This document shows, piece by piece, positions 17,418 to 35,838 of a stretch of 38,868 bases of DNA. The position numbers and the translations under genes are program-made. Each line of letters starts with the position of its first letter. Within the stretch, counting starts at the first letter, position 1. Under the pieces are notes generated by a model. The model searched no databases, was not told the DNA's origin, and was given only the letters and a program-made list of their open reading frames with translations. The DNA comes from Acidobacteriota bacterium (GTDB lineage: Bacteria > Acidobacteriota > CAIWXX01), in NCBI GenBank assembly GCA_016191015.1, contig JACPPM010000200.1, forward strand, positions 85,954 through 124,821, read 5' to 3'.

Positions 17418-19457
17418 GTGTTCCAATCGGGGATGGCCGGTATCGGCCTACTGATCCTCATTGCGTTCGTCATCGTCGTTCGTTCGCTTCACCGGATCGG
17501 CCCGACCGAAGTCGGGCTCGTCACCAAGAAGTACGCGCGGGGCAAGCTCAGCGACGACAGCCCGATCGCCTTCAATGGCGAGGCTGGCTACCAGGCCGAG
17601 CTTCTCATGCCGGGGCTTCGATGGAAGTTCTGGCCTGTCTTCGCCGTCCAGAAGTTCCCGTGGGTCCAGGTCCCGGCTGGCGAGATCGGCGTCGTCATCG
17701 CGCAGCTCGGGCACCCGCTGCCGATCGGTGCAAAATCGGCGCAGTACAAAGCCGAGTTCGGGAATTTCACGAACCTGCGCCTCTTCGTCGGCCACGGCGG
17801 CGAAAAGGGCGTGCAGCGGCCGGTCCTGCCTCCGGGCACCCTGGCCCCGATCCATCCCGTTGCGTTTCTCGTCATCACGAAAACCGCCGTGTACGGCATC
17901 CCGGTCAGTCCGGATCTTCATAAGGTCGCCGACAGCCAGAAATTGCACCCGAGTCATTTCGGCCTGCAGGCGGCACAGCTCGAAGTCCTGCGGATCCAAC
18001 CGCGTCCGACCGAGAGCGGCGAAGTGCTCGATATGATCGGCACCGTGACGGCCTATGAAGGCCAGCCGGTCGGGGATGGCGATATCGCCAGCCGGATCGG
18101 TGGCTTTACCGACATTCATGCGCTCGAGGAGCAGGGCGCGCCTAACTCGAAAATGATCGAAGCCGTGATCACGAGCAAGAACAATCTGCACAACAACTAT
18201 CAGGACTTCCAGGCGTTTCTGGATCACGGTGGGCGGATCGGCCTGCAGCACGACCCGCTGCTCTACGGCGCATATACACTGAACCCGTTCCTGGTCGGTG
18301 TCGAGCTTGTTCCGATGCTGGTCGTGCAGCAGGGCGAGGTCGCCGTGGTCAAGGCCTACACGGGGCTTCCGACACAGGACACGTCGGGTGCCGAATTCAA
18401 GTTCGGTTCGCTTGTGAGGCCAGGTCACCGCGGCATCTGGGAAGAACCGCTGCGGACAGGCAAGTACCCGATCAACCCGCGCTGCTACCAGGCCGAGATC
18501 GTCCCGACGTCGATCCTCACGCTCAACTGGGCCGACGCCGTCTCGCAGGCGCACAACCTCGACCGCAACTTGAGCCAGATCATCGCCAAGTCTCGCGAGG
18601 GGTTCGTGTTCAAGATCGATCTACAGGTGCAGATCCACGTTCCCGACACGCAGGCGCCGAAGGTCATCTCGATTGTCGGCACGATGTCTAATCTGGTTAA
18701 TGAAGTCTTGCAGGCCGCGGTCGGCAACCACTTCCGCGACAAGCTGCAGGCGATGGAGGCGGTGGCGTTCATCGAGCGCCGCCAGGAGGTGCAGAGGCAG
18801 GCGTACGAGCACGTCCGCGACCAGCTCGAACAGTACCGCGTCGACACGCGCGGCGTGTACATCCAGGATGTGATCCTGCCCGAGGAGCTTGTGCGTATCC
18901 TGCGCGAACGCGAAATCGCGAAGCAGCAGATCGAGACGTTCGAGCGGATGCGACAGGCTGAGCAAAAGCGCATCGAGATGGAGCAGGCCAAGGGCACGGC
19001 CGACATGCAGGCAGATCTGGCGAAGTCGCAGGTCGGCGTCACGATCGAACAGAGCCACGCCGAAGCGCGCAAGGCGCAGGCGCAAGGTGAAGCGGCTTAT
19101 ATCGAGCGAATGGGCCAGGCCAAGGGCACGGCGCGCACCTCCGAAGCGCTGGGCGAAGCCGACTACATCGAGAAAACCGGCGTCGCGAAGGGTGCCGAGG
19201 TGCGTTCGGTAGGCCTCGCCCGCGCCGAAAGTTTCGAGAAACAGCGCGAAGCGCTCGGCAGCCAGGCCACCGCCCTCCTGAATCTCGCCGAGGCCCTCGG
19301 CCGCGTCGTCGGCGAGATCAAAGTGCCCGTGATGCCGCAAACCCTGATCACCGGAGGCGACGGGACATCGGTCCTGAACGGCGTCGGCGCCGCCTTGATG
19401 TCGTATCTGAAAAACGGGACGGCGCTGCAGGAGGGGGAAGACAACACCCAATCCTGA
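17418..19457 (+). CDS. Flotillin-like SPFH/band 7 membrane protein
   Basis: The product has 679 residues. GTG 17418 is preceded by AGGAGGAG. One N-terminal membrane helix (MAGIGLLILIAFVIVV, about 6-21) is followed by band-7/SPFH segments (RIGPTEVGLV near 27-36; MLVVQQGEVAVV near 295-306). A long charged coiled coil then follows (about 485-630; EREIAKQQIETFERMRQAEQ, then Ala/Gln/Glu repeats such as AQGEAAYIERMGQAKG). The C-terminus is AEALGRVVGEIKVPVMPQ. Flotillins scaffold ordered membrane microdomains and oligomerise through the coiled coil. The gene ends in a terminator. A diverged copy of its 3' end reappears at 29736-29838, on the far side of the first defence genes, in the same orientation. 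Confidence 0.9.
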   Translation: MFQSGMAGIGLLILIAFVIVVRSLHRIGPTEVGLVTKKYARGKLSDDSPIAFNGEAGYQAELLMPGLRWKFWPVFAVQKFPWVQVPAGEIGVVIAQLGHPLPIGAKSAQYKAEFGNFTNLRLFVGHGGEKGVQRPVLPPGTLAPIHPVAFLVITKTAVYGIPVSPDLHKVADSQKLHPSHFGLQAAQLEVLRIQPRPTESGEVLDMIGTVTAYEGQPVGDGDIASRIGGFTDIHALEEQGAPNSKMIEAVITSKNNLHNNYQDFQAFLDHGGRIGLQHDPLLYGAYTLNPFLVGVELVPMLVVQQGEVAVVKAYTGLPTQDTSGAEFKFGSLVRPGHRGIWEEPLRTGKYPINPRCYQAEIVPTSILTLNWADAVSQAHNLDRNLSQIIAKSREGFVFKIDLQVQIHVPDTQAPKVISIVGTMSNLVNEVLQAAVGNHFRDKLQAMEAVAFIERRQEVQRQAYEHVRDQLEQYRVDTRGVYIQDVILPEELVRILREREIAKQQIETFERMRQAEQKRIEMEQAKGTADMQADLAKSQVGVTIEQSHAEARKAQAQGEAAYIERMGQAKGTARTSEALGEADYIEKTGVAKGAEVRSVGLARAESFEKQREALGSQATALLNLAEALGRVVGEIKVPVMPQTLITGGDGTSVLNGVGAALMSYLKNGTALQEGEDNTQS

Positions 19458-19464
19458 CTGCGGG

Positions 19465-19496
19465 ACGGGGCGGCTCCTTGCCGCCCCGTGTTTCTA
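19465..19496 (+). terminator. Rho-independent terminator after the flotillin gene
   Basis: A perfect 10-bp GC stem ACGGGGCGGC / GCCGCCCCGT (19465-19474 / 19480-19489) with a 5-nt loop, followed by a short T-rich tail (GTTTCT). It begins 8 nt after the stop codon. Confidence 0.75.
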
Positions 19497-19505
19497 GCGC
19501 CCTCG

Positions 19506-19560
19506 GGCACCATCACTCGACTGGTGCCATAGCTCAGCAAGGCGCCTGTCGTGCTATGAT
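19506..19560 (+). promoter_or_regulatory. Candidate operator and promoter of the ATPase-PIN-NACHT operon
   Basis: Inverted repeat GGCACCA / TGGTGCC (19506-19512 / 19522-19528, 9-nt spacer) lies just ahead of a good -10 box TATGAT (19555-19560). No convincing -35 is seen, which would be compatible with an activator or with control at the inverted repeat. ATG of the ATPase is 29 nt downstream of the -10. Confidence 0.35.
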
Positions 19561-19588
19561 GAATCGGCAATGACGCCCGAGTAACGGC

Positions 19589-20974
19589 ATGATAACTCGC
19601 CTGCGCATCCAGAATTTCAAAGCCTGGAAAGATACGCAATCCATCCGATTGGCGCCGATAACGGTCTTCTTCGGTGCGAACAGCGCAGGCAAGACTAGTC
19701 TCCATCAGCTCTTGTTGATGCTCAAACAGACCGCGCAGTCGTCGGATCGCCAGCGAGTTCTTCACCCGGGTGGCGATCAGAGCATCGTCGATCTCGGCAC
19801 GGTACAGGATCTCGTTTTCGCACATCAAGGGACTGCCCGAATAGAGTTCGAGATCGAGTGGAGCCTGAATGCGGAGCTCCGAGTGAAGGACACCCTAGCT
19901 GAGACCGAATACCGGGGCGAAAGGATGAGCTTTGCAGCTAAGATAGCCCCTCGTGACGGCAAGCTTCCCTCGCTTGTGGTTGAAAACATGCGCTATCAGC
20001 TCGGTGTCGCAGCCGAGGGTGGCCTTGCAGTGCAGATGATCGAGCAACCTAATTTTCCTGGGAGGTATGAGATTGCGTGCGACGGTCCCCCGCTGGTTCG
20101 GCAGCGTGGTCGCGCATGGCCGCTACCCGCCCCCATTCGGTTCTATGGGTTCCCGGATGAAGTAAGGGCGTATTTCCAGAACGCGGACTTCGTCGCCGAT
20201 CTGACTCTCGCCTTCGAACAAATGCTGAGCGGACTGCATTACCTCGGACCCCTTAGAGAATACCCGCGACGCACGTACATGTGGTCTGGCGAAAGGCCCG
20301 AGCACGTGGGAACGCGCGGTGCGAGCGCCGTCGAGGCGCTCCTTGCGGCACGCGATAGGTTTCTCAACCGTCGGCCAAAGGCCAAGAAGGAGCCCTTTGA
20401 ACGTGTGGTTGCGCGCTGGCTCAAAGCGATGGGGCTCATTGAGGAGTTTGAGGTCCACCGAGTAGCCCCCCATTTGAAGGAGTACGAGGTCAGGGTTCGT
20501 ACGGCTGGTAGCCCACACATGGTGAGCCTTATGGATGTGGGGTTTGGCGTCTCACAGGTTCTGCCCGTCTTGGTCGAGTGTTTCTATGTTCCAAGTGGGG
20601 CAACGATCATCTTTGAGCAACCCGAAATTCATCTACACCCGCGCGTCCAGGCAAAGCTCGCCGATCTCTTCATTGAAGCGATTCACATGCGCGAAGCCGG
20701 CAAGAGCCGGGGTGTCCAGTTGATCATCGAGAGTCATTCGGAGCATTTCCTTCGCCGTCTTCAGCTCGGGATCGCCGAGGAGAAACTCAAACCAGAGGAG
20801 GCTGCACTCTACTTCTGCGAACCGGGATCGGAGGGATCACGGATTCATGAGCTGCAACTTGATCTTTTCGGCAACATTGATAATTGGCCGGATTCTTTCT
20901 TTGGGGATGAGCTCGGGGATCTCGCGGCAATGAACGATGCGGCTATGCAGCGATCGGAGCGCACTCGCAGTTGA
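19589..20974 (+). CDS. OLD/AAA_15-type ABC ATPase with DUF3696-like C-terminus
   Basis: The ATPase has 461 residues and opens with MITRLRIQNFKAW, the classic start of RecF/OLD/AAA_15 ATPases. Walker A is GANSAGKT (29-36), the signature-like segment is DVGFGVSQVLPVL (about 316-328), Walker B is IIFEQPEIHLHP (340-351) and the H-loop is ESHSEHFL (381-388). The tail FGNIDNWPDSFFGD (about 430-443) resembles the DUF3696 end of such proteins. No TOPRIM nuclease is fused; the effector is probably the PIN protein whose TTG start overlaps this stop by 4 nt. Comparable ATPase plus nuclease pairs (OLD, Gabija, PARIS) sense phage and unleash a toxin. The sensing role here is inferred. Confidence 0.85.
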   Translation: MITRLRIQNFKAWKDTQSIRLAPITVFFGANSAGKTSLHQLLLMLKQTAQSSDRQRVLHPGGDQSIVDLGTVQDLVFAHQGTARIEFEIEWSLNAELRVKDTLAETEYRGERMSFAAKIAPRDGKLPSLVVENMRYQLGVAAEGGLAVQMIEQPNFPGRYEIACDGPPLVRQRGRAWPLPAPIRFYGFPDEVRAYFQNADFVADLTLAFEQMLSGLHYLGPLREYPRRTYMWSGERPEHVGTRGASAVEALLAARDRFLNRRPKAKKEPFERVVARWLKAMGLIEEFEVHRVAPHLKEYEVRVRTAGSPHMVSLMDVGFGVSQVLPVLVECFYVPSGATIIFEQPEIHLHPRVQAKLADLFIEAIHMREAGKSRGVQLIIESHSEHFLRRLQLGIAEEKLKPEEAALYFCEPGSEGSRIHELQLDLFGNIDNWPDSFFGDELGDLAAMNDAAMQRSERTRS

Positions 20975-21501
20975 CTAGCACGCCGTCGCCATGCCTGGTC
21001 GATACCAATGTTCCGTTAGCAGCCATAGGCCGGGCAACTGCGGAGTCACGGTGTCAGCGTGCATGTGCGATGGCCATTCGAGAGGTGATGACGAGAGGCC
21101 ACCTCGTTCTCGACGCTCACTACATCATCATCAAAGAGTACCGCAGCAACCTCTTCACCACGGGTCAGCCCACTCTGGCTTCGAGCTTTCTCAAGTGGGT
21201 TCTGACGAACCATACGAACAAGGAAAGATGCTCATTGGTTTCTCTCACGCCGAAGCCGGGTGCATCACACGAATTCGCGGAATTCCCCTGCCACCCGGAG
21301 CTGGATAAGTTCGATCCTTCCGACCGCGTCTTTGTTGCCGTTGCAGCAACCCACCCTGACAGGCCACCGATCCTCGAAGCCACCGACAGCAAGTGGTGGG
21401 GTTGGAGAGAAGCGCTGCGGGCTAGCGGGATCCGAGTCGTCTTCCTGTGTCCGGAAGAGGTCTCTGAGCGCTCCCGTCGCAAAGCGAGGCGACGCAGATG
21501 A
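20971..21501 (+). CDS. PIN-like nuclease paired with the ATPase
   Basis: The protein has 176 residues. The start is TTG 20971, overlapping the ATPase stop (TTGA). PIN-type acidic positions are Asp11 (CLVDTNVP), Asp48 and Glu56 (LDAHYIIIKEY), Asp118 (PSDRVFVAVA) and Asp139 (ATDSKWW), a complete set for a metal-dependent ribonuclease. The tail is strongly basic (RSRRKARRRR), suggesting nucleic-acid binding. It is longer than a VapC (about 130-145) and has no adjacent ribbon-helix-helix antitoxin, so the upstream ATPase is its likely controller. The NACHT gene follows after 21 nt, so all three may be one transcript. Confidence 0.75.
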   Translation: MTSTPSPCLVDTNVPLAAIGRATAESRCQRACAMAIREVMTRGHLVLDAHYIIIKEYRSNLFTTGQPTLASSFLKWVLTNHTNKERCSLVSLTPKPGASHEFAEFPCHPELDKFDPSDRVFVAVAATHPDRPPILEATDSKWWGWREALRASGIRVVFLCPEEVSERSRRKARRRR

Positions 21502-21522: not shown

Positions 21523-24500
21523 GTGAGCACAACGCGTTATCCGTGGACCCGATTCTGGATTCCGCGCGGAGACATCGTGCACTTCGACGACGGCGGGTAC
21601 TTCTCCGATCCGGTGGTCGGGGTCGGGCAGTACCTGCACGAGAATGCCAGGATGCTCGCCTCTCTGCGAGATTGCCCCTGCCTCGTTCTCCTCGGGGAAG
21701 GTGGCGCAGGGAAGACGGATGAGATGAGCATGCTCCGCGAGCAGATCCATTCGGCTGGCTCAGGGGAGAAAGTCCTGTTCCGAGATCTGGGTACTTACGG
21801 CTCCGAGGATCAACTGCACGCCGATTTGTTTGGTTCAGATGTCTTCCGAGAGTGGACCAGAGGGACCGACCGGCTCGTCCTATTCCTTGACAGCCTGGAT
21901 GAAGCCTTCTTGGAGTTCAACACGGTTGCCGAGCTCATCAAGAGGGGCTTGAGGGATGCCCCTGTGAACCGGCTCAGCATTCGGATCGCCTGCCGAAATG
22001 TCTGTTGGCCCGAGAGTCTTTCGGCTTACTTCACGGGGTGCTTTGGGCCGGAGAACGTCGGGACCTACGCACTGGCTCCTCTTCGGCGAGTTGACGTCAA
22101 ACGAGCCATTGAGGAGGAGGGACTCGACGGTGATGCGTTTCTGGCTGCCGTCGCCGCCACCGAGGCACAGGCCTTCGCCATTAACCCGTCGACACTCCGG
22201 ATGCTGATCGGAGTTTTCAAGAACAAGGGTGGATTGCCCAGGAGAAAATCGGACCTGTATGAACAAGGACTGAAGCATCTCTGTGAGCCGAGCGATGAAA
22301 GACGGGAACGCCAACGCGGTCCGGCGTTGAGCGCGACCGAGATGCTTGATGTCGCCGCCCATATCGCAGCCATGACCATTCTGACCGGCCGTCCGTCCAT
22401 CTACGATGGCCACGAGTGGGACGCTCCGGTACGGTGCGTATCCCTGTCCTCACTCGGTGTCGCGGGCCCCGCGGCCGCGGGCTCCGAGCAGATTGCGAGC
22501 GAACAGAACATCCAAATGACTTTGCGGAATACCGGGCTGTTCACGAGCGAGGGGCCCAACCAATACAAGTTCTCGCATCGCACCTATCAGGAGTATCTGG
22601 CGGCGAGGTTCCTTGCACGGGCGAACCTCTCGCCGCAACAGCTTGACAGCCTACTCTTCCACCCTGAAGGTAAACCGCGCCAGCTCATTCCGCAGCTTCG
22701 CGAAGTGGCGGCATGGATCGGCGTTCTCAACCCGGGCTTTTTTGAACGGGTCTTCCAATCTGAACCGGAGACGGTGTTGCTGTGTGACTCCTCTGTCCTC
22801 GATGGAGATATCAAGGCGCGTGTCGTGAACGAGCTTCTGGTGAAGATCGAGCGGGGCGATCTGCCAGAGGAGCTGACTGAATCCCTCTCCGAGCATTTCC
22901 ACAAGCTGCGCTATCCGGGTCTTGCAGAGCAAGTCTCCAAAGTAATGCTCGACACGGAAAGAAACTGGCGCGTGCGCCTGATCGCCATGGACATCGTTGC
23001 GGAGTGCGGACTGCGGGACTTGGCCGGCATGGTGGCGCGCTTGGCGCTGGACCAGACACTTGACATGCAACTCCGCACACAAGCCGCGCTGACGGTCGAA
23101 CGGCTTCGAGACGATGATGCGTGCCAGATGCTCAGGCCGCTCGCGTTAGGACTCGCCGGTGAAGATCCAGACGATGAGCTCCGAGGATGCGGCCTTAATG
23201 CCACATGGCCAGAACATCTGACCGTGCGAGAGCTGTTCAATAGCCTGACGCCACCGAAGAAGAGGCACTATGTAGGGACCTACTCCGTGTTCCTCCATAA
23301 AACGGGAATGCTGTCAGGTTTGGACGATGACGGGCTTCGGATCGCGATGCGTTGGGCAGGCTCACAGTTGCCTCCGGGCGAATCAACTCACGCCCTTGAC
23401 CAGATCGTCGTGCTGTTGGCCAAGCGAGCCTGGACTAACATGAATGATCCGGTCGTCCTCGAGAATCTGGCACTGCTCGCCATTCGGCACTCTATGGAAC
23501 AATTGCCTCTGTTCGGCACGGGCTCGCAGGAGGATGAAATCCTGTCTCCGGATCCCTACGAGGTTACTTCGCAGATGATCCAACATGATACAGAGCGCCG
23601 TCGAAAGCTCATCACCGGAGTCGTGCAGTGCGCAGTTGGCATCGCAGACATCAGAGCCTTGAGCATCAACCCGACGCCACTCTGTCTCACAGACGACTTC
23701 CCGTGGTTGGTCCAGGAGGCACTTGAGGCGGACGGAGTGACTGCCGAAGTGTGGAGTGAGCTGGCTCGCATGGCCTTCGACATCAATGACCCGGATCACG
23801 TGTCAATCTGGGTGGTCGCGCGCGATAAGTCTGCGGCATTGGCATCCGCGATGCCTTGGCCGGTGTCGGTTGATCTATCGAGCCAGGCGGCGCGGGCGGG
23901 ACGTAATCGCCTCGAAGACCTGCGGCAGCGGGAGCAACGGCAGAGGTCAATGCGAGAATCGCTTCCTCCGCGAGGACAACGTGTCAAGGAACTGGCGACC
24001 CTCTGTCGCGGCGGGGCCGTGGAGTTGTTTTGGAGGCTCGCCGCCGAGATGTCCGCCGCCGGCGAGAGCCCGTGGACATCAATCACTCTGGATCTGACGA
24101 GCACCCCCGGATGGAAAGAGGCGGATCAACCCACGCGAGAGAGCATTCGAGAAGCGGCACGAAGGTATCTTGGTGACGCTGTGCTCGATCCGAACGCCTA
24201 CCTGGGAAGTGGACAGATCCGTCTTTCCGACCTCGCCCCACCCCAGGCCGCTCTTCTTCTGCTCGATGAGAATCCGCGCTCACTGGATGATTTGGACAAA
24301 CAGAGGTGGAGAGTCCTATCCCCGTGCGTCTTGGCGGCACTGGATGGCATCCCTTCCCACAACGCCGAGGCCGCTCGCCGAGTCCTGGCGCTAGCCTGGA
24401 ACAAGGTACCTGACGAAGCACGGACAACCACACGCCTGCTCATCGCCAGACGAGCCGCACAATCCTACCTCCCAACCATCTTGTCACTTCTCGGCCCGGT

Positions 24501-25599
24501 CGCGGATGAGGAGTTTCTCATCGGTCTGCTCGGCGAGCTGAAGGAGAACCCTTCAGCTTGGATGGCGTTCGGAGACATCCTCGGATGGCTGATAGACCAG
24601 AAGGCCCCCGGCGCTTTGCAGCACGCCGAGGGCCTGGTTCGTACACCCGTCGCGATCGATTTGCTCGAGCGGGATTGCTCGATCGAAGCCGGTACCGCAC
24701 TGATGCTCTATGGTCCCGATGCGGGTTGGAGGGTCATGTGGCCTGCTCTCTCAGTTGATCCAACCTGGGGAAAGGAAGTCTTGGAGAGAGTGGCTGACAA
24801 GGCGGATGACAGAGACATCGTGGTCGAAGAAAGACTTTCCGATGATTCCGTGGGACTGCTGCTTTCGTGGCTCGTCAGGGAGAATTCGCCGGAGACGGAC
24901 GACGAACCCCAAGGTGCGTTCGTCGCCACTCAAGAGTGGGGGGTACGGGAATGGCGCAACCGGTTGGTCTGCCACCTGCGAGACCGTGGCACTCGATCGT
25001 CCTGCGCCGCAATCGAGCGTCTGTGCAGTGAATACCCGGCAATCGAGTGGCTGAGAGCAGTGCTTGCGGCAGCGAACGAGAATCTTCGCAGCAATTCATG
25101 GGCTCCACCAACTCCTGCGCATATCTTGGCGCTGGTCGAGAGCTCCAGGCGACGTTACGTCACAAGCGGAAGCCAGCTCCTCGATTTGATCTGCGAGAGC
25201 CTTGAACGCCTGGCAATGACGCTGCACGGAGAGACGCCAGCCGTACGCTTTCTCTGGGAAAACGCGGAGACATCAACACCCAGACCGGTGATTGAGAACA
25301 AGCTCTCTGATTACGTCGCAATTCACCTGAGAGATGATCTGCAGGGCGAGGTTGTCGTGAATCGCGAGGTAGAAGTGAGGGCTCCGCTTCGGTCAGTTGA
25401 AGGGGCAGGCCAAGAGACTGACATTCATGTGACCGCACGCCTCACTCGCGACTCCTGGGCGCCAACCGATATCCTGAGTGCGATCGTCGAGGTCAAGGGC
25501 TGCTGGAACCCAGACGTGCGCCACGCGATGAAGACGCAACTCGTCGGCAGGTACGTGCATGAGAACCCCTCCCCATTCGGGCTCTATCTGGTCGGTTGA
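21523..25599 (+). CDS. NACHT-type STAND NTPase with C-terminal PD-(D/E)XK nuclease (interrupted)
   Basis: The product has 1358 residues. GTG 21523 follows GTGAGGAG. The P-loop is GEGGAGKT (58-65), Walker B is LVLFLDSLDEA (118-128), and the NACHT-linked motif FSHRTYQEYLAARF is at 350-363. A long helical, HEAT-like middle (about 380-1230) would be the sensor. The C-terminus is a restriction-type fold: Asp1300 in TDIHV, then Glu1323-x-Lys1325 in IVEVKG, then QLVGRYV and GLYLVG. The frame then stops at TGA 25597. In this nuclease family YLVG is normally followed by Trp, and 55 further open codons downstream continue the domain. So the gene carries a late nonsense change, a sequencing error or readthrough. 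An anti-phage role is inferred from the architecture and neighbours. Confidence 0.85.
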   Translation: MSTTRYPWTRFWIPRGDIVHFDDGGYFSDPVVGVGQYLHENARMLASLRDCPCLVLLGEGGAGKTDEMSMLREQIHSAGSGEKVLFRDLGTYGSEDQLHADLFGSDVFREWTRGTDRLVLFLDSLDEAFLEFNTVAELIKRGLRDAPVNRLSIRIACRNVCWPESLSAYFTGCFGPENVGTYALAPLRRVDVKRAIEEEGLDGDAFLAAVAATEAQAFAINPSTLRMLIGVFKNKGGLPRRKSDLYEQGLKHLCEPSDERRERQRGPALSATEMLDVAAHIAAMTILTGRPSIYDGHEWDAPVRCVSLSSLGVAGPAAAGSEQIASEQNIQMTLRNTGLFTSEGPNQYKFSHRTYQEYLAARFLARANLSPQQLDSLLFHPEGKPRQLIPQLREVAAWIGVLNPGFFERVFQSEPETVLLCDSSVLDGDIKARVVNELLVKIERGDLPEELTESLSEHFHKLRYPGLAEQVSKVMLDTERNWRVRLIAMDIVAECGLRDLAGMVARLALDQTLDMQLRTQAALTVERLRDDDACQMLRPLALGLAGEDPDDELRGCGLNATWPEHLTVRELFNSLTPPKKRHYVGTYSVFLHKTGMLSGLDDDGLRIAMRWAGSQLPPGESTHALDQIVVLLAKRAWTNMNDPVVLENLALLAIRHSMEQLPLFGTGSQEDEILSPDPYEVTSQMIQHDTERRRKLITGVVQCAVGIADIRALSINPTPLCLTDDFPWLVQEALEADGVTAEVWSELARMAFDINDPDHVSIWVVARDKSAALASAMPWPVSVDLSSQAARAGRNRLEDLRQREQRQRSMRESLPPRGQRVKELATLCRGGAVELFWRLAAEMSAAGESPWTSITLDLTSTPGWKEADQPTRESIREAARRYLGDAVLDPNAYLGSGQIRLSDLAPPQAALLLLDENPRSLDDLDKQRWRVLSPCVLAALDGIPSHNAEAARRVLALAWNKVPDEARTTTRLLIARRAAQSYLPTILSLLGPVADEEFLIGLLGELKENPSAWMAFGDILGWLIDQKAPGALQHAEGLVRTPVAIDLLERDCSIEAGTALMLYGPDAGWRVMWPALSVDPTWGKEVLERVADKADDRDIVVEERLSDDSVGLLLSWLVRENSPETDDEPQGAFVATQEWGVREWRNRLVCHLRDRGTRSSCAAIERLCSEYPAIEWLRAVLAAANENLRSNSWAPPTPAHILALVESSRRRYVTSGSQLLDLICESLERLAMTLHGETPAVRFLWENAETSTPRPVIENKLSDYVAIHLRDDLQGEVVVNREVEVRAPLRSVEGAGQETDIHVTARLTRDSWAPTDILSAIVEVKGCWNPDVRHAMKTQLVGRYVHENPSPFGLYLVG

Positions 25600-25767
25600 T
25601 GCGGATGCGGCGCCTGGGATGCGAATGACAGTAGAAGAGACCGCGTTCCGTGGACCTCCATGAAAGAAGCCCAATGCGAGCTGGAATCCCAGGCACTCGA
25701 GCTGACCAGGACCCTCCGACCCCACGGAGAGGTGAGAGCACGCGTTCTCGACTGCGGGCTGCGGTAG
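25600..25767 (+). pseudogene. Severed C-terminal tail of the NACHT-nuclease protein
   Basis: In frame with the preceding gene, the 55 codons after TGA 25597-25599 are open to TAG 25765-25767. They encode a tail with CGCGAWDANDSRRD, a helical segment MKEAQCELESQALEL and VRARVLDCGLR. With Trp at the TGA, the order W-x-x-C-x-x-W-D followed by D-RR matches what I know of this nuclease family's end. No start codon with a ribosome site is seen for independent expression. The remaining 126 nt to 25893 hold only a weak hairpin (TGGCCG-CAGC-CGGCCA, 25825-25840) between converging genes. Confidence 0.75.
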
Positions 25768-26230: not shown

Positions 26231-29200
26231 CTAGTTTCCCTCCTTTCCGCCCGTCCATTCGCGGGCCTCCTTGCGCAGGTAGTTTCCCAACTTCGCCACG
26301 ATCCCGATGACCTCATTGATCTGCGCTCTTAGATTGGGTCCCTCAAAGACGGGATCTCGCGCGGCCTCAAATGGGTATGGCTTTAGCCAATCATTAATTG
26401 CGGCTTGCGCAGCCGCGATGATTTCGTGGAACTGCCGTTCTGGATTCTCGCGAAATGCGCGGACCGTGGCAGCGTATGCAATTGCCGGCGAGCATGAGGC
26501 ATAAAATCGTGAAAGGACTTCTCCAGGACGAAGCGATCGTCGGGCTCTCTGCCATAAGTATTGGATCTCATGAGCGGACCGCACAGTCATTTGGGTGATC
26601 GACCCGAACGGATCGCCTCCAAGGCCACTAATGACCCTCCAACAGCCTTGGATTGCTCGACCGTGTCCGTTCGCACAATCACCGAGTGCTTGGGCCATCG
26701 TCGCGTAACCGTCCAGGGGAGGCGGCGCCCCTTCCTCGATCATTCGCCTGCATGCCTCAACCGCACGCCTACGGTGGAAGAGCCCTTTCTTCACAAATTC
26801 CAGGCCACAACGGAAGTGCTCAATGAATGCCGTGCGATCCGTCGTCAGAACCTCGCTATCACGCCATTGCCGATAAAACTCGCCGTGGAATCGTTGAATC
26901 ATCCAGACGGCAAGCCAGTAATCCTTCGTCGCCTCGTCCACGGCTGCGCTTTCGATCCAGGTCAGCTCCTCATCCCAGCAGGCCTCCCAGCCGTCGATAC
27001 ATTTTGCCAGAGCGTGGACTCTTTCATACTCGCGCGTGTAATAGTCGGCATACATCATGATGCGGTTGTGCCTCCGCATGAACCACCATTTGGCCGGAAT
27101 CGCGTGAGCGGCCGTGAAATAGTGGTCAATTCGCGATCCATCTTCATGAAACCGAAGGGCAAACCGAAGTTGTTCCTCTGCGTGGTTTTCGTTTACGGGA
27201 GGGAGAAAGTAGCCCAGATAGTTTATGGAATGGGAGGCAAGGTAGGCAGCCATTCCCAAGTGCTCCGGCCTGACAGCAGCTTGAGCGCGCGATACTGTCT
27301 CATAGAGTTCTGCGTGCGGCTGGATTCGACTTACACCTTGGGCACTCCTGTCAAATGCGCCAGTATGCTGCAACCATTGCAACGCGCGGTAAGAACGAAG
27401 AAGCGCGTCAAGTGTGCTTCGGCGAATGCGCAAGTATGCTTCGTTCGCAACATCCAGAAACGGAGATACGCCACGCTTCTCTCCGCATAGGCTCCAAATC
27501 AGAAACACGTACACCCACGGTGGCTGCTCGATGAGTACAGGGCCAAGCTCGAACTCCGAATGTCCTCCGGCGATCTCCCTGAGGATCGTCAGCGCCGAAA
27601 GGGCGTCCTGTAGGTAGTCATGATCAAACCGCACGCGGTCCTGCACCGGGCGAATCATCTCTGGACCTGCTCGATCGAGGAGGCCTGGCGGTGCCTCCGT
27701 CGCGGGGATCCATCGTTCTCCTTTTGTGCGGTAGGCAAATTGCGAAAGTTCCTCGCGAACACTGGGGCGCAACATTCGCAGCCTTTCCTGCACGAACTGC
27801 TCAGGTTGAATGGAGAAATGGCCCTCACGAAAAGCTTCGACGACCTGGATGTCCGGCCTCGTTTCGAGATATGGCCAGTCATCAGCCACTTCGGAGCGGC
27901 ACGCGAGCACAAGCACAGCATCGTCCGGCACCTTGACCCGCGAGAGTTCCTCCTTCCAGTACTCGGCGTTTCGCTGAGCGAGAGTGTGATCAAAGTGGTC
28001 CACCAAGAATAGCCTGCCCGATTTCTCCGGTGATTTTCTCGTGCTCAGGTCCAGTTCCCGTGCATCACGTGGAATGAATTCGATGTGAAAGGCAGACCAG
28101 GATCGAGGTGCGTTGGCGGCCAAGTTACGCAGTAACGTCGACTTACCTACGCCACCGGCGCCCACCAGAAGGTAGACCGTCCCCCGGCGTAGGTTACAGT
28201 CCGTCACGAGCCCCGCTGCCGTCACTCGCAGGAGCGTCTCACCGAGCTGACAGCTCTGAGGCGTGAGGACTCCGTCCGCTCCAATGAATACTCTGGCACC
28301 CCTTTCGCGATTCTCCACGACGACGGCGCCAGCTGGCTCAAAGCTCACCTCCTTCGATCGGTGAACCGAAAGAAAGCGGCATACCCATTCAGGATCGTGT
28401 TTGCCGACTTGGAGCCGCACGGTGCACTCAAGATCCCGCCGAGGAGCTGGCGACGGAGCGATGAGATGGTAACGTGCCTCCCAGCGGATATCCGGCATTC
28501 GGTCAATCCTCAGGACTCCCGCCAGCCGACGATTCCGCCGGATCAGGTCACGCTCCAACATCTCACGGGCTCGTTCGAGCTGATACTCCCTCACGATAGG
28601 ATCCAGGAGCGGTGTCAGTGCAACGCCATACCTGATTTCGAGATCTGCGCTGGGCCCGAGACATACAGAAGGAGTCCCAATGAGACTTACGTCCGAGTAC
28701 TTGTGTTTGGGCTCGCCCTTCTCCCACAGGAGACTGGCATCGATGCGTTCGCGGCTCCACTCCTGTGCCTCGTCGACAAGGTGGAGCAGAAAGGATACCG
28801 GATCGTGGCGAAGTGAGATTCCGAACCACTCGTCTTTGGAGGAAACCAGGTACTGAAAGTTATGGCTGGCGCAGGCGAGCGCAGCAGTCCTGAGAACCGC
28901 ACCCGTGAAACTGCGTTCCGAAGGGGCGCTCAGATCCGCCTCGTTCGCCCGATCCCAGAGTAAGAACGCGGCGGTGAGTGCATGGTCTGGTTGATCAAGC
29001 TGTCTCCGAAGCGCGTCACTCGAAAGAATCGGCACCTTCCGCCTCCGCTCCTCGTCAGTGGCATAAAGGCCCGCTCTCCAGGCGAACAAGGGCGCCAGAG
29101 GGGCGTCTTTCCCGTAGGTCATCGTCATCCCAGGAACAGAAGTGTCTACGTACGGGAAATCTTGGACCACCTGCCGGGCGAAGCTGAGTGAAAAGTGATG

Positions 29201-29656
29201 GAACTGAATGGGATACCCGATGTCATGGAAGTGAGCGGCGAGAAACCAAACGCGATTGAGAAACACCATCGCATCGCCATCATGACCCGTCCGCCGAGCC
29301 AGGTCGGCGCCAAGTGGCTGGAAGTAGCTCGTCGAATTCAAGATGAAGTAACCGAGGAGGAAGTCGTGAATGGTATGTCGCAGGTGGTCGCGCTGTTCTT
29401 GAACCAGCGCGTTCACCACACCCTCCGACTCGAGCATTCTGGTAAAGAGGAAGTCAGCCAACTCCGCATCGTCAGGGTCATCAAGGGCATCCACAAGGCG
29501 CAAGGAATAGTGGCGATACATTGATTCGACGCTCGCCGCCGTGTTGGCATCCGCCAACGCGGAAAGGATTACGTCTTTCAGCCACACGTCTCCACCCAGC
29601 CGGGCAATCCCCTGCAAGAGAAGCGTCAAACTCGGATCGGTCGTGGAGACGTCCAT
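26231..29656 (-). CDS. HD-domain / STAND P-loop NTPase fusion
   Basis: The product has 1141 residues. The N-terminal third carries an HD metal-hydrolase pattern: His91/His94/His97 (DHLRHTIHD), the paired HFHDIGYP (His144-Asp145), ASHNFQYL (His265) and LLHLVDEAQEW (Asp295). The centre is a P-loop NTPase with Walker A GAGGVGKS (499-506) and a Walker B-like strand LFLVDHFDH (about 549-557). The C-terminal half is helical, without clear repeats I can assign, and would be the sensor. The layout effector-NTPase-sensor matches STAND immune proteins, with an HD hydrolase as the putative effector (nucleotide or nucleic-acid phosphohydrolase). No strong ribosome site is seen before ATG 29656. Function is inferred; I know no named system with this order. 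Confidence 0.75.
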   Translation of the reverse strand: MDVSTTDPSLTLLLQGIARLGGDVWLKDVILSALADANTAASVESMYRHYSLRLVDALDDPDDAELADFLFTRMLESEGVVNALVQEQRDHLRHTIHDFLLGYFILNSTSYFQPLGADLARRTGHDGDAMVFLNRVWFLAAHFHDIGYPIQFHHFSLSFARQVVQDFPYVDTSVPGMTMTYGKDAPLAPLFAWRAGLYATDEERRRKVPILSSDALRRQLDQPDHALTAAFLLWDRANEADLSAPSERSFTGAVLRTAALACASHNFQYLVSSKDEWFGISLRHDPVSFLLHLVDEAQEWSRERIDASLLWEKGEPKHKYSDVSLIGTPSVCLGPSADLEIRYGVALTPLLDPIVREYQLERAREMLERDLIRRNRRLAGVLRIDRMPDIRWEARYHLIAPSPAPRRDLECTVRLQVGKHDPEWVCRFLSVHRSKEVSFEPAGAVVVENRERGARVFIGADGVLTPQSCQLGETLLRVTAAGLVTDCNLRRGTVYLLVGAGGVGKSTLLRNLAANAPRSWSAFHIEFIPRDARELDLSTRKSPEKSGRLFLVDHFDHTLAQRNAEYWKEELSRVKVPDDAVLVLACRSEVADDWPYLETRPDIQVVEAFREGHFSIQPEQFVQERLRMLRPSVREELSQFAYRTKGERWIPATEAPPGLLDRAGPEMIRPVQDRVRFDHDYLQDALSALTILREIAGGHSEFELGPVLIEQPPWVYVFLIWSLCGEKRGVSPFLDVANEAYLRIRRSTLDALLRSYRALQWLQHTGAFDRSAQGVSRIQPHAELYETVSRAQAAVRPEHLGMAAYLASHSINYLGYFLPPVNENHAEEQLRFALRFHEDGSRIDHYFTAAHAIPAKWWFMRRHNRIMMYADYYTREYERVHALAKCIDGWEACWDEELTWIESAAVDEATKDYWLAVWMIQRFHGEFYRQWRDSEVLTTDRTAFIEHFRCGLEFVKKGLFHRRRAVEACRRMIEEGAPPPLDGYATMAQALGDCANGHGRAIQGCWRVISGLGGDPFGSITQMTVRSAHEIQYLWQRARRSLRPGEVLSRFYASCSPAIAYAATVRAFRENPERQFHEIIAAAQAAINDWLKPYPFEAARDPVFEGPNLRAQINEVIGIVAKLGNYLRKEAREWTGGKEGN

Positions 29657-33400: not shown

Positions 33401-33604
33401 AACGTCGGCGGGGATCAGGCAGAGGGCACGGTCATAGTCTTCCGGACGCCGCCTGCGATAGCCGCCGGGCTCCGGGCCATCGCCATACGGCGCCACTGGT
33501 TCGTGCACGACCCAGGCTTGCCCCGCGCACTCATCAGGGCCACGTGCAAGCAACGCACACTCGATTGCTTCTTCGAAGCTGCGTTCCGAGATCTCCGGAC
33601 TCAC
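30434..33604 (-). CDS. hsdR: Type I restriction endonuclease subunit R
   Basis: HsdR of 1056 residues, normal length. The N-terminal nuclease has Asp164 and Glu178-Leu-Lys180 (LDVVLFLNG, then FTAELKN). The helicase motor has Walker A SAGSGKS (331-337), DEAH (437-440) in VIVDEAHSSQSGE, and motif III FTATPKG. It translocates DNA and cleaves remotely when HsdM/HsdS find unmethylated sites. GTG 33604 overlaps the hsdS stop as GTGA and its own stop overlaps the PIN start. No frame breaks are seen, so the system looks intact. Confidence 0.95.
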   Translation of the reverse strand: MSPEISERSFEEAIECALLARGPDECAGQAWVVHEPVAPYGDGPEPGGYRRRRPEDYDRALCLIPADVLGFVNATQPREWEKLGHHYGAEVKDRFLKRLSREIERRGALDVLRTGVKDAGCKFMLAYFRPSSGLNEPLQKLYQANLFAVVRQLRYSQKNENRLDVVLFLNGIPIFTAELKNPLTGQTVEDAIQQYRFDRDPREPLLAFRRCLVHFAVDPDLVYVTTHLEGPTTRFLPFNQGKFGGAGNPPVPPTQRGYATAYLWDRIWARDSILELLQHFIHEVEEEDENGRRTGRSKLIFPRYHQLDAVRRLVRDARERGPGQHYLIQHSAGSGKSNSIGWLAHRLSVLHDAHDRRVFDSIIVITDRRVLDRQLQRTIRQFEQTSGLVENIDKTSHQLKEALEAGKTIIVTTLQKFPVIANQIQELPTNRFAVIVDEAHSSQSGESTKSLKSVLTVSSLEEAEAVDGAVEEDIEDRVEAEMRKRGPLPNVSFFAFTATPKGKTLELFGTPRPDGKFEAFSLYSMRQAIEERFILDVLENYTTYKTYWRLLKTIKDDPHYDRNKASYLLRSFVDLHEHPIRKKVEIIVEHFRERVVHRIGGHAKAMIVTRSRLHAVRYKLALDAYLKERNCPYRALVGFSGTVRDGGADFTETGMNTLPETQTAAAFRRAEFRFLVVAEKFQTGFDEPLLHTMYVDKKLGGVHAVQTLSRLNRVYPAKGETIVLDFANEAEEIQRAFEPYYEKTLLSEATDPNKLYDLEHRLGEFDVFDAGDLDAFAKVYFRPGAQQDQLYAVLAPTVERVGALSEEERADFRGALDDYVRLYAFLSQILTFTDPGLEKLYVFARLLRRYLPVERGQLPREIQSKIDIESYRIQQTHSGRITLERGLNEIPPIGSEIRHGKSEEDLEALSKIVRELNERFGTDFTEEDKVFIHELEDRLTADEALMQSVRVNTPENARLAFDHVVSDRLQDMVDTNFKFYKRVTDDPQFGKFFGDWLFERFRTSVDTRTRAGESEPERRPYDAVAHLIGSVEGGDPKRSEGGAKKIAEILRKRRRQ

Positions 33605-35838
33605 GCAACTTCCTCCCGCACGTCGATCTTCCCTGTCACTCCGGCGGAAATCAGCGCGGTGCGGTACACCTTGAGGCGATCAATGGCCTCGTGGACTTTG
33701 GAGATCAACGCGTCGAACTTGGATACTTCGCAATCGATCTTGTTCACCATGGCTTGTTGCTCTGGAAGCGGCATGATCAGAACGCGCAGATTCCTGATGT
33801 CATCGAGTCCCAGTCCCTGCTTGGTACCACCATACAGCGCCGTCGCAAATTGCGACTGCCCCACGGAAGAGAGCAGGCAATAAGCAAGCCATCGAGAGTG
33901 TGTCAAATCGGCGCGAGGCCGCACGAGAGCCAAATGTTGATTGACGTAAGCTATTGCCATTTCTTGGGGGACGACTCCCACCGCACCAATAAGTGCTGTG
34001 ATCGATATCAAGACATCCCCCGCTACCACTCTTGTCCTCTGGCCCTCCGCGCCGTCTGGCGGCACAACTCGTTGGATGTCAGACAAATCGAGATCTATCG
34101 ACCCCGACCTGAGATTGCCAATTTGTAGGAAAACGCTCCCCTGGTCTGCGTAGAACTCAGCCCATCCCCGAGAACCGCTCGTAATGAATGAAGCCACGTT
34201 CTTGATACGGAGCACATCCCAATGCGCCGGGATCCTCCCCAGCCACTCGACTCCCGAATCCTTCATCGGGACGTTCGGGTCGAGGCCCTTGGTGACAGCG
34301 TCTGTGATCAGTGTAGTACGCTTCTGCTGAAGCAGCTCGATCAGCCGCTCCTTCTTGGCAATCAGCGCGTCGATCTTCGTGGTCTGGCGAGTGAGGAACG
34401 TTGCGATGGCCTGCTGTTGCTCATAGGAGGGCAATGGGAGCGAAACGTCAGCCATATCGCTCTGGGTCAGCTTGTCGCGTGTACTGCCGTCTATGAACAC
34501 CCCGTACTCCACACAATTGAGAGCGCTCGCCAGGAATTCACCGAAAATACCTTGTCTGGGGCGCAGCACATGTATGTGGTTGTTGACCCAGATCTTCCCA
34601 GTCACACAATAGGCAACCGTCTTATGAGGTTCCAGGAAAGGCGCGCCGTCCTCGCCCAAGAGCACGAGCTCCTCGTCAAAGATCCATCGATCGATGTGGT
34701 CGACTACGCCACCGGCGCCCCAGTAAGGGTAGTCCCCTTGCATCATACTTCTCTCCTGAGAATTCAAGGGGACCCGCTTGCCATCGAGGCAAGAGACGAG
34801 ATGGCGGACCCTCTTCACACCCCAATGGTTCGGGATTTCTCCCATCCACGGGACGTCTGAGTGCTTGTATGAAGGATATGGCTTGAGTCCTGACGATAGC
34901 GTGGAAGTTGGTTCCCTCTTCGCGGGTGTCCATGACCCGTCATCAATCCATGCTGTACCAAGCTCTTGCTTACCAGTCAGAGCCTCGATCAAAGGCCACA
35001 GGAACCCTCTGATGGCTTCCCCAACCGCGCTGAAGTCGCGCGGCGCGCGCGTGAGGCCGTTCCTTTCAAGGTATGCCCGCCACTGGTCAGCTCTTCCGCG
35101 GTTGGCGAAGAAGGCTGGCGAGAGACCGGGTGGCAGCGATCCTGGCAGGTCTGTGTTGCGCCGTTCGAAAGTCGCGGCGATGGCACGCGAAAGGGTCGCG
35201 CTGTCGAATGTGAACACCTTGGAGAGAACGAACAGGTCGTAGAAGTCTTTCAGTCGGCTGTTTGCCTCGCCGAGGTGGACCATCGCATGAAGCTTTTCGG
35301 CGACGACGGCTTCGCGCGGGTAAGCTCGGATGCGAGGGGCAGGGCCGCCCAGCATGGTCGGAAAGTCAACATCCTGCGGCCCGGGAACGACATCGTTGCC
35401 GAACCCAATGTCCACCTGCAGTGAGATCATGGCGCGTTCTAAGTGGGCTTCGATACGAAGGCGAACTCCCAGGTATTCAGCACTGTCGCGGATCTTCTCA
35501 GCCTCGATGGTGTCCGAAAGAAAACGAAGAGCGTCGTCCGGGACATCGATCGAACAGATCTCGCGGAAGCACTTCGCCATCGCCGCGGGATCGGGCGCTC
35601 CATGACCGAGAAGGTCAAGGTCGCGAGTCGAGCGATACGCATCCCCACCCCAGACCGTGTACAGCATTGCCCCCTTGAGCACGAATTGATCTCGGTACGT
35701 TGATCGCGACAGCCGGTAGAGCAGCCGCTCTGCCGTGTATCGCTGCATAACCAGTTGGAAGTCCTCCTGCCGCTCCCGGGCGCGGTTGAGAAGCCTCGCG
35801 TGGATGGAGGCGGCCAGGTTGCGCGGGGTCTCTCTCAC
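33601..35838 (-). CDS. hsdS: AbiEii-type nucleotidyltransferase toxin fused to type I specificity subunit HsdS
   Basis: The product has 745 residues. Residues 1 to about 303 are an AbiEii/AbiGii nucleotidyltransferase: LKGAMLYTVWGG, then STRDLDLL with the catalytic Asp pair (73, 75), AEKLHAM (180-186) and RLKDFYDL (195-202), ending in a WIDDGSW motif. After a short linker, SSGLKPYPSYKHS at about 315 opens a full HsdS. TRD1 runs to about 465, the central helices (LPLPSYEQQQAIATFL, 467-482) follow, TRD2 begins at a second KDSGVEWLGRIP (526-536), and the distal helices carry LPEQQAMVNKI. No ATG, GTG or TTG suited to a separate hsdS start lies in the linker; the first in-frame ATG is inside WMGEIP. 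GTG 35838 overlaps the abiEi stop. AbiEii toxins modify tRNA or consume GTP; tethering one to HsdS is unusual. Confidence 0.88.
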   Translation of the reverse strand: MRETPRNLAASIHARLLNRARERQEDFQLVMQRYTAERLLYRLSRSTYRDQFVLKGAMLYTVWGGDAYRSTRDLDLLGHGAPDPAAMAKCFREICSIDVPDDALRFLSDTIEAEKIRDSAEYLGVRLRIEAHLERAMISLQVDIGFGNDVVPGPQDVDFPTMLGGPAPRIRAYPREAVVAEKLHAMVHLGEANSRLKDFYDLFVLSKVFTFDSATLSRAIAATFERRNTDLPGSLPPGLSPAFFANRGRADQWRAYLERNGLTRAPRDFSAVGEAIRGFLWPLIEALTGKQELGTAWIDDGSWTPAKREPTSTLSSGLKPYPSYKHSDVPWMGEIPNHWGVKRVRHLVSCLDGKRVPLNSQERSMMQGDYPYWGAGGVVDHIDRWIFDEELVLLGEDGAPFLEPHKTVAYCVTGKIWVNNHIHVLRPRQGIFGEFLASALNCVEYGVFIDGSTRDKLTQSDMADVSLPLPSYEQQQAIATFLTRQTTKIDALIAKKERLIELLQQKRTTLITDAVTKGLDPNVPMKDSGVEWLGRIPAHWDVLRIKNVASFITSGSRGWAEFYADQGSVFLQIGNLRSGSIDLDLSDIQRVVPPDGAEGQRTRVVAGDVLISITALIGAVGVVPQEMAIAYVNQHLALVRPRADLTHSRWLAYCLLSSVGQSQFATALYGGTKQGLGLDDIRNLRVLIMPLPEQQAMVNKIDCEVSKFDALISKVHEAIDRLKVYRTALISAGVTGKIDVREEVA

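What the first reader, a model, noticed from the sequence alone, without database searches (positions are those of the whole stretch)
21523..25767. In-frame TGA at a conserved Trp position splits the nuclease domain of a NACHT protein
Seen: after GLYLVG comes TGA, then 55 open in-frame codons encoding CGCGAWDANDSRRD and ending VRARVLDCGLR. Known: nuclease domains of this type commonly read YLVG-W-F-x-C-x-x-W-D. A TGG to TGA change fits exactly. Options are a recent nonsense mutation disabling an autotoxic gene, stop-codon readthrough, or a sequence error. UGA recoding genome-wide is unlikely because other genes here end in TGA.
Basis: partly seen in the sequence, partly recalled or inferred. 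Interest (0 to 1): 0.75.

Follow-up and report, generated by a model that had tools for sequence, protein, structure and literature searches.

The report
Defence gene broken by stop codon
A large bacterial immune-type (NACHT/STAND) gene has one in-frame TGA stop where its relatives carry tryptophan, cutting off the last 56 residues of its DNA-cutting domain; this is most likely an ordinary, recent loss-of-function mutation rather than a new way of reading the code.

Summary
An ORF (21523-25599, 1358 aa) ends at TGA 25597-25599, and 55 open in-frame codons follow to TAG at 25765. Of 83 relatives from many phyla, none stops at this site: 69 have Trp (always TGG), 7 Tyr, 3 Phe, 2 Cys, 1 His, 1 Leu. 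The 55-codon tail matches the family C-terminus (z = 10.9 against shuffles). Modelled with the stop as Trp, the domain folds confidently as a PD-(D/E)XK nuclease. The stop falls inside a core strand and removes the last long helix and the last strand; the catalytic D, ExK and Q lie upstream. The gene belongs to a NACHT/STAND family related to, but below the NCBIfam cut-offs of, the antiphage proteins EruA and HyoA, and sits in a defence island. Genome-wide UGA recoding is refuted. Selenocysteine was a real rival because the host has SelA and SelB, but there is no SECIS-type hairpin and almost no Cys homologues. The +4U context and a normal tRNA-Trp argue against efficient readthrough. Best reading: a recent single nonsense mutation inactivating a costly nuclease. 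About 16% of assessable relatives are broken elsewhere in the gene. A base-call or mixed-population artefact cannot be excluded without reads.

The parts
21523..25599 (+). Truncated NACHT/STAND-type NTPase gene with C-terminal PD-(D/E)XK nuclease (1358 aa, GTG start)
   Evidence: ORF; collinear with 13 intact relatives over its whole length at about 30% identity; NCBIfam EruA 1.1e-63 and HyoA 3.4e-49, both below cut-off
21694..21717 (+). P-loop GEGGAGKT (residues 58-65)
   Evidence: G58, G61, G63, K64 invariant in the 14-row alignment
21886..21903 (+). Walker B-type motif LDSLDE (residues 122-127)
   Evidence: L122, D123, D126, E127 invariant
25126..25764 (+). PD-(D/E)XK nuclease domain as modelled, stop read as Trp
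   Evidence: AlphaFold2 mean pLDDT 90.2, pTM 0.88; BamHI Z 9.5, Can2, McrC, PaqCI, EcoT38I
25420..25497 (+). Catalytic D (25420-25422), E (25489-25491) and K (25495-25497), all upstream of the stop
   Evidence: D99, E122, K124 (and Q138) invariant in 72 relatives
25597..25599 (+). In-frame TGA at the conserved Trp position (model residue 158, end of strand 151-158)
25598..25610 (+). Perfect tandem hexamer GATGCG GATGCG G covering the last two bases of the stop and the neighbouring Cys codon
   Evidence: One of 17 period-6 tandem repeats in the window
25600..25764 (+). Severed 55-codon tail of the nuclease domain
   Evidence: Homologous to the C-termini of 83 relatives; last helix and strand of the model
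25765..25767 (+). TAG, the ancestral end of the gene
   Evidence: Tail length agrees with relatives

Best explanation
This is a single-protein NACHT/STAND antiphage-type sensor, with a STAND NTPase near the N-terminus, a long repeat-like middle and a C-terminal PD-(D/E)XK nuclease, in an Acidobacteriota defence island. One recent nonsense change at a conserved Trp codon truncates the nuclease domain at a core beta-strand. Shown here: the stop, the homology of the severed tail, the predicted fold, and the absence of other lesions. Inferred: the intact protein senses infection through the NTPase and repeat part and fires the nuclease; the truncated protein does not fold or work as a nuclease; the loss was tolerated or favoured because such an effector is costly or self-toxic. 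The change is too recent for the tail to have decayed.
For: Trp (TGG) in 69 of 83 relatives and no stop in any. Tail homologous and in frame. Stop removes the last long helix and last strand of a confidently modelled PD-(D/E)XK fold; the truncated form models worse (pLDDT 83.6 and pTM 0.78 against 90.2 and 0.88). UGA is an ordinary stop in this genome: RF2 present, 83 ABC-ATPase domains without an internal TGA, most window genes end in TGA, only tRNA-Trp CCA with a 5-bp anticodon stem. UGA-U is a low-readthrough context (PMC5289835). Twelve independent relatives of 73 assessable are disrupted elsewhere in the gene, so loss is common in the family. Tail not measurably relaxed, so the event is recent.
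Against: Only one sequence of the allele exists here, and no reads. The conserved tail is equally expected if the tail were still translated. No expression or phage data. Self-toxicity and antiphage activity of this gene are inferred from relatives and context. Part of the family's apparent breakage may be assembly error.
Confidence: 0.8

Rival explanations
1. The TGA is a consensus or assembly artefact, or a minority variant in a mixed sample, and the organism's gene is intact.
For: Draft genome in 349 contigs, no reads available. A single substitution in an otherwise perfect frame and an undecayed tail are just what an error would look like. A plasmid record in the same family is broken by what look like single-base assembly gaps relative to an intact sister record. 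A local tandem hexamer lies at the site.
Against: The rest of the window's large genes are open, and 83 ABC-ATPase domains of the genome hold one in-frame stop in all, so the consensus is generally good. Substitution errors in consensus sequence are rare (general knowledge), and the adjacent unusual Cys codon would need a second error.
Confidence: 0.12
2. The UGA is read through as Trp or another residue by a near-cognate tRNA at low frequency, keeping a small dose of full-length nuclease.
For: Tail shows no relaxed constraint (ranks 51 and 33 of 84) and GC3 equal to the body.
Against: +4U is a low-readthrough context (PMC5289835). tRNA-Trp has a canonical 5-bp anticodon stem, not the 4-bp form that reads UGA (PMC13092985). 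No UCA-anticodon tRNA found. No relative has a stop here, so there is no conserved recoding site.
Confidence: 0.05
3. The truncated protein is a functional variant: the NTPase and repeat part without an active nuclease acts as a regulator, decoy or dominant-negative partner.
For: All NTPase and repeat-region motifs and the whole 1358-codon frame are intact. A second STAND-type ATPase gene lies next to it.
Against: No relative in the set ends near this point, so the form is not recurrent, and nothing shows that it is maintained.
Confidence: 0.02
4. The UGA encodes selenocysteine, giving a UxxC motif (U-C-G-C).
For: The host encodes SelA (502 bits) and SelB (344 bits), both over their cut-offs. 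The local sequence would be U-C-G-C, and two relatives have Cys at this column.
Against: The downstream RNA is no more stable than shuffles and fails a lax SECIS criterion that 80% of all TGAs in the window pass. Trp, not Cys, is the family residue (69 against 2 of 83). No tRNA-Sec found, though the tRNA set is incomplete. A redox residue has no evident role in a PD-(D/E)XK nuclease.
Confidence: 0.01

Closest known systems
EruA (NCBIfam NF058535, NACHT domain-containing antiphage protein)
   Same: Similarity over residues 45-809 (E 1.1e-63); similar length (model 1318 positions); all 14 family members scanned match
   Different: 215.9 bits against a cut-off of 1000, so not an EruA; the best-scoring match does not include the C-terminal nuclease part; window copy truncated
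HyoA (NCBIfam NF058534, NACHT domain-containing antiphage protein)
   Same: Similarity over residues 179-587 (E 3.4e-49); all 14 members match
   Different: 167.5 bits against a cut-off of 1200, so not a HyoA
PD-(D/E)XK nucleases (BamHI, McrC, Can2/Card1, PaqCI)
   Same: Predicted fold of the C-terminal domain (Z 9.5 to 7) and invariant D, ExK, Q
   Different: Fused to a STAND NTPase; under 17% sequence identity; no activity shown
Ordinary bacterial pseudogenes of defence genes
   Same: Single nonsense lesion in an otherwise intact frame; other family members broken independently
   Different: Nothing distinctive except that it looks young and the lesion falls at a near-invariant Trp

Membership tests
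NACHT/STAND NTPase proteins | P-loop and Walker B motifs conserved | tested here: met
   G58, G61, G63, K64 and D123, D126, E127 invariant among 14 members
NACHT/STAND NTPase proteins | Match to a curated NACHT or nSTAND profile | tested here: inconclusive
   Window: nSTAND_NTPase5 E 0.04, below cut-off. Relatives: NACHT in 3 of 14, AAA_16 in 8 of 14
EruA / HyoA equivalogs (NCBIfam) | Score above the curated cut-off | tested here: not met
   215.9 of 1000 and 167.5 of 1200 bits
PD-(D/E)XK nucleases | D ... ExK catalytic signature | tested here: met
   D99, E122, K124 invariant in 72 relatives
PD-(D/E)XK nucleases | Restriction-endonuclease-like fold | tested here: met
   Predicted model only; BamHI Z 9.5 over 162 residues and nearly all top rows are PD-(D/E)XK enzymes; Foldseek alone was weak (best E 2.3e-3, not a nuclease)
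PD-(D/E)XK nucleases | DNA cleavage | not testable with these tools
   Needs an assay
Organisms that read UGA as Trp (code 4 type) | UGA inside conserved genes genome-wide, RF2 lost, UCA-anticodon tRNA-Trp | tested here: not met
   No TGA in 83 ABC-ATPase domains, prfB present at 480.7 bits, only tRNA-Trp CCA found, genes end in TGA
Bacterial selenoproteins | Host Sec machinery | tested here: inconclusive
   SelA and SelB present; tRNA-Sec not found in an incomplete tRNA set
Bacterial selenoproteins | SECIS hairpin just downstream of the UGA | tested here: not met
   Fails a lax hairpin criterion recalled from the bSECISearch model; z -0.56 to 1.68. The bSECISearch program itself was not run, and a few atypical SECIS elements are known
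Bacterial selenoproteins | Cys homologues at the Sec position | tested here: not met
   2 of 83 Cys, 69 of 83 Trp

The most novel reading that the evidence does not exclude
The UGA is a maintained, conditionally read-through codon that keeps the nuclease part of a suicide-type immune protein at low dose, releasing full-length protein when termination weakens, for example during phage takeover.
Probability: 0.03. Interest if true: 0.75.

Novelty: new member of a known kind. Interest (0 to 1): 0.17.

Why it matters
On the best reading it is one more broken copy of a costly immune gene. Its use is as a well-documented example: an intact 1358-codon frame with a single nonsense change that cuts into the effector domain. 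The family survey suggests that loss of these NACHT-nuclease genes is frequent (about one in six assessable relatives), which would bear on how long autotoxic defence genes survive. If the UGA were read through, it would be a new way of dosing an immune effector.

Tried and rejected
A first genome-contig scan with the window protein alone and a viral-contig scan found nothing; an alignment query was needed. A nucleotide search of plasmids gave no match, so no close relative was found to date the mutation. Genome-wide recoding was tested and rejected. A selenocysteine reading was prompted by finding SelA and SelB, then rejected on SECIS and homologue evidence; the molybdopterin oxidoreductases of the host gave no Sec-UGA positive control. 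Relaxed constraint in the tail was tested and not seen. PADLOC models do not name the window gene, and only single relatives gave weak hits. No solved structure matches by sequence. The paper searches found no antiphage description of EruA or HyoA. An HsdR control in the same phylum gave four matches with in-frame stops among roughly 150 listed; it counts stops only, not frameshifts, so it is not a full control for the family's breakage rate.

Full report
Observation. The window is bases 85954-124821 of a 124.8 kb contig of a 6.43 Mb draft genome in 349 contigs. It is probably Acidobacteriota: a same-phylum genome (G253) has a 55,667-base contig with the same match as a record deposited as a Thermoanaerobaculia MAG. 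The host's order is held with only two genomes, and the other one lacks the gene.

Homologues. A profile of five sequences brought in 80 loci from GTDB genomes, and three more came from plasmids. They span cyanobacteria, Nitrospira, planctomycetes, actinomycetes, Paenibacillus, Chloroflexi, proteobacteria and even an archaeal bin. Every one continues past YLVG, mostly for 50-60 residues. At the column of the stop: Trp 69 (all TGG), Tyr 7, Phe 3, Cys 2, His 1, Leu 1, no stop. The window tail scores far above its own shuffles (58.5 against -46.9, sd 9.6; 0 of 5000 reach it) and is closest to a Phycisphaerales protein (L045), sharing PW..M.EA..EL..QA..L and VLDC.LR.

What the protein is. Over its whole length the protein aligns collinearly with 13 intact relatives at about 30% identity, with an invariant P-loop and LDSLDE. 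Pfam recognises it poorly (nSTAND5 E 0.04; NACHT in 3 of 14 members). NCBIfam places it near the NACHT antiphage proteins EruA (1.1e-63) and HyoA (3.4e-49), but far under their cut-offs. The C-terminal domain, modelled with the stop read as Trp, has mean pLDDT 90.2 and pTM 0.88. Its best structural matches are PD-(D/E)XK enzymes: BamHI Z 9.5 over 162 residues, then Can2, McrC, PaqCI, EcoT38I, FokI; Foldseek alone was weak. The invariant D, ExK and Q lie before the stop. The stop is at model residue 158, the end of strand 151-158; lost are helices 169-173 and 179-197 and strand 202-209. The truncated form models worse (pLDDT 83.6, pTM 0.78). That it cannot work is an inference.

Surroundings. 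The gene starts 22 bases after a PIN-like HEC-03A gene that overlaps an AAA-ATPase HEC-03B gene, with an SPFH/Band 7 gene before them, all on the + strand. Convergent to it lie a second STAND-type ATPase gene, a PIN gene, and a type I restriction cluster with AbiE genes. This is a defence island.

Is UGA read here? Genome-wide recoding is excluded: RF2 is present, none of 83 ABC-ATPase domains holds a TGA, most genes in the window end in TGA, and the only tRNA-Trp found is CCA with a normal 5-bp anticodon stem, unlike the 4-bp variant shown to read UGA in E. coli (PMC13092985). The base after the stop is U, a context of low readthrough (PMC5289835). Selenocysteine deserved a test because SelA and SelB are encoded. 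No tRNA-Sec was found, though the tRNA set is incomplete. The downstream RNA is no more stable than shuffles, and it fails a lax SECIS criterion that 80% of all TGAs in the window pass (the criterion is recalled from the bSECISearch model, and that program was not run). Almost all selenoproteins have many Cys homologues (PMC12013277); here 2 of 83 have Cys.

How old is it? The tail is no more diverged than expected from the upstream part (rank 51 of 84 from the most diverged; profile score rank 33 of 84), and its GC3 equals the body's. With no second lesion in the frame, either the mutation is recent or the tail is still translated; one sequence cannot tell these apart. The stop and the neighbouring Cys codon (Phe or Tyr in 79 of 83 relatives) both lie in a perfect tandem hexamer, GATGCGGATGCGG at 25598-25610, one of 17 such repeats in 38.9 kb. 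One templated or slippage event could have made both changes; this is a post hoc inference and weak.

Family context. Among 74 relatives with enough upstream sequence, 13 loci (12 independent of 73; L016 and L017 are the same sequence in two bins) are disrupted: frameshifts (L034, L036, L038, L060, L064, L070, L078), in-frame stops (L014 TAG, L033 TAA, L034 TGA), a large internal deletion (L016/L017), an insertion (L078), and N-terminal truncations (L014, L033, L082, L088). None is at the Trp codon. Some may be assembly errors: a Bradyrhizobium record broken in this gene differs from an intact sister mainly by single-base gaps, and L082 and L088 could be variant architectures. Repeated loss fits a costly or self-toxic effector, but no matched control for frameshifts was run; the HsdR control counts stops only.

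Verdict. An ordinary, probably recent nonsense mutation in a NACHT/STAND-PD-(D/E)XK defence gene (0.80), with a sequencing or population artefact (0.12), readthrough (0.05), functional truncation (0.02) and selenocysteine (0.01) as rivals.

Noticed in passing
33601-35838 (-): One 745-aa ORF matches a whole AbiEii toxin (1-304) followed by a whole type I restriction specificity subunit HsdS (318-743), with AbiEi and HsdM genes next to it. Of 1560 plasmid records with a match, none covers both halves; the junction reads open. An apparent toxin-specificity subunit fusion worth its own look.
   Followed up: partly
17418-21501 (+): Band 7/SPFH protein gene, then an AAA-ATPase and PIN-like pair matching PADLOC HEC-03B and HEC-03A, ending 22 bases before the NACHT gene; they may be one operon.
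   Followed up: no
26231-29656 (-): A second large STAND-type ATPase gene (1141 aa), convergent with the broken one, with its NTPase domain starting near residue 487.
   Followed up: no
L034, L036, L038, L060, L064, L070, L078, L014, L033, L016/L017, L082, L088: Relatives of this gene are often disrupted (frameshifts, stops, deletions, one insertion), also in isolate genomes such as Singulisphaera acidiphila DSM 18658.
   Followed up: partly
host genome G000, contigs C21 and C336: The host encodes SelA and SelB but no tRNA-Sec was found, and no in-frame TGA turned up in its molybdopterin oxidoreductases.
   Followed up: partly
L016 and L017: The same internally deleted gene appears in a bacterial bin (Desulfobacteraceae Eth-SRB1) and an archaeal bin (Ca. 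Argoarchaeum) with the same isolate prefix, with identical C-terminal sequence over the stretch printed; likely a binning mix-up.
   Followed up: no
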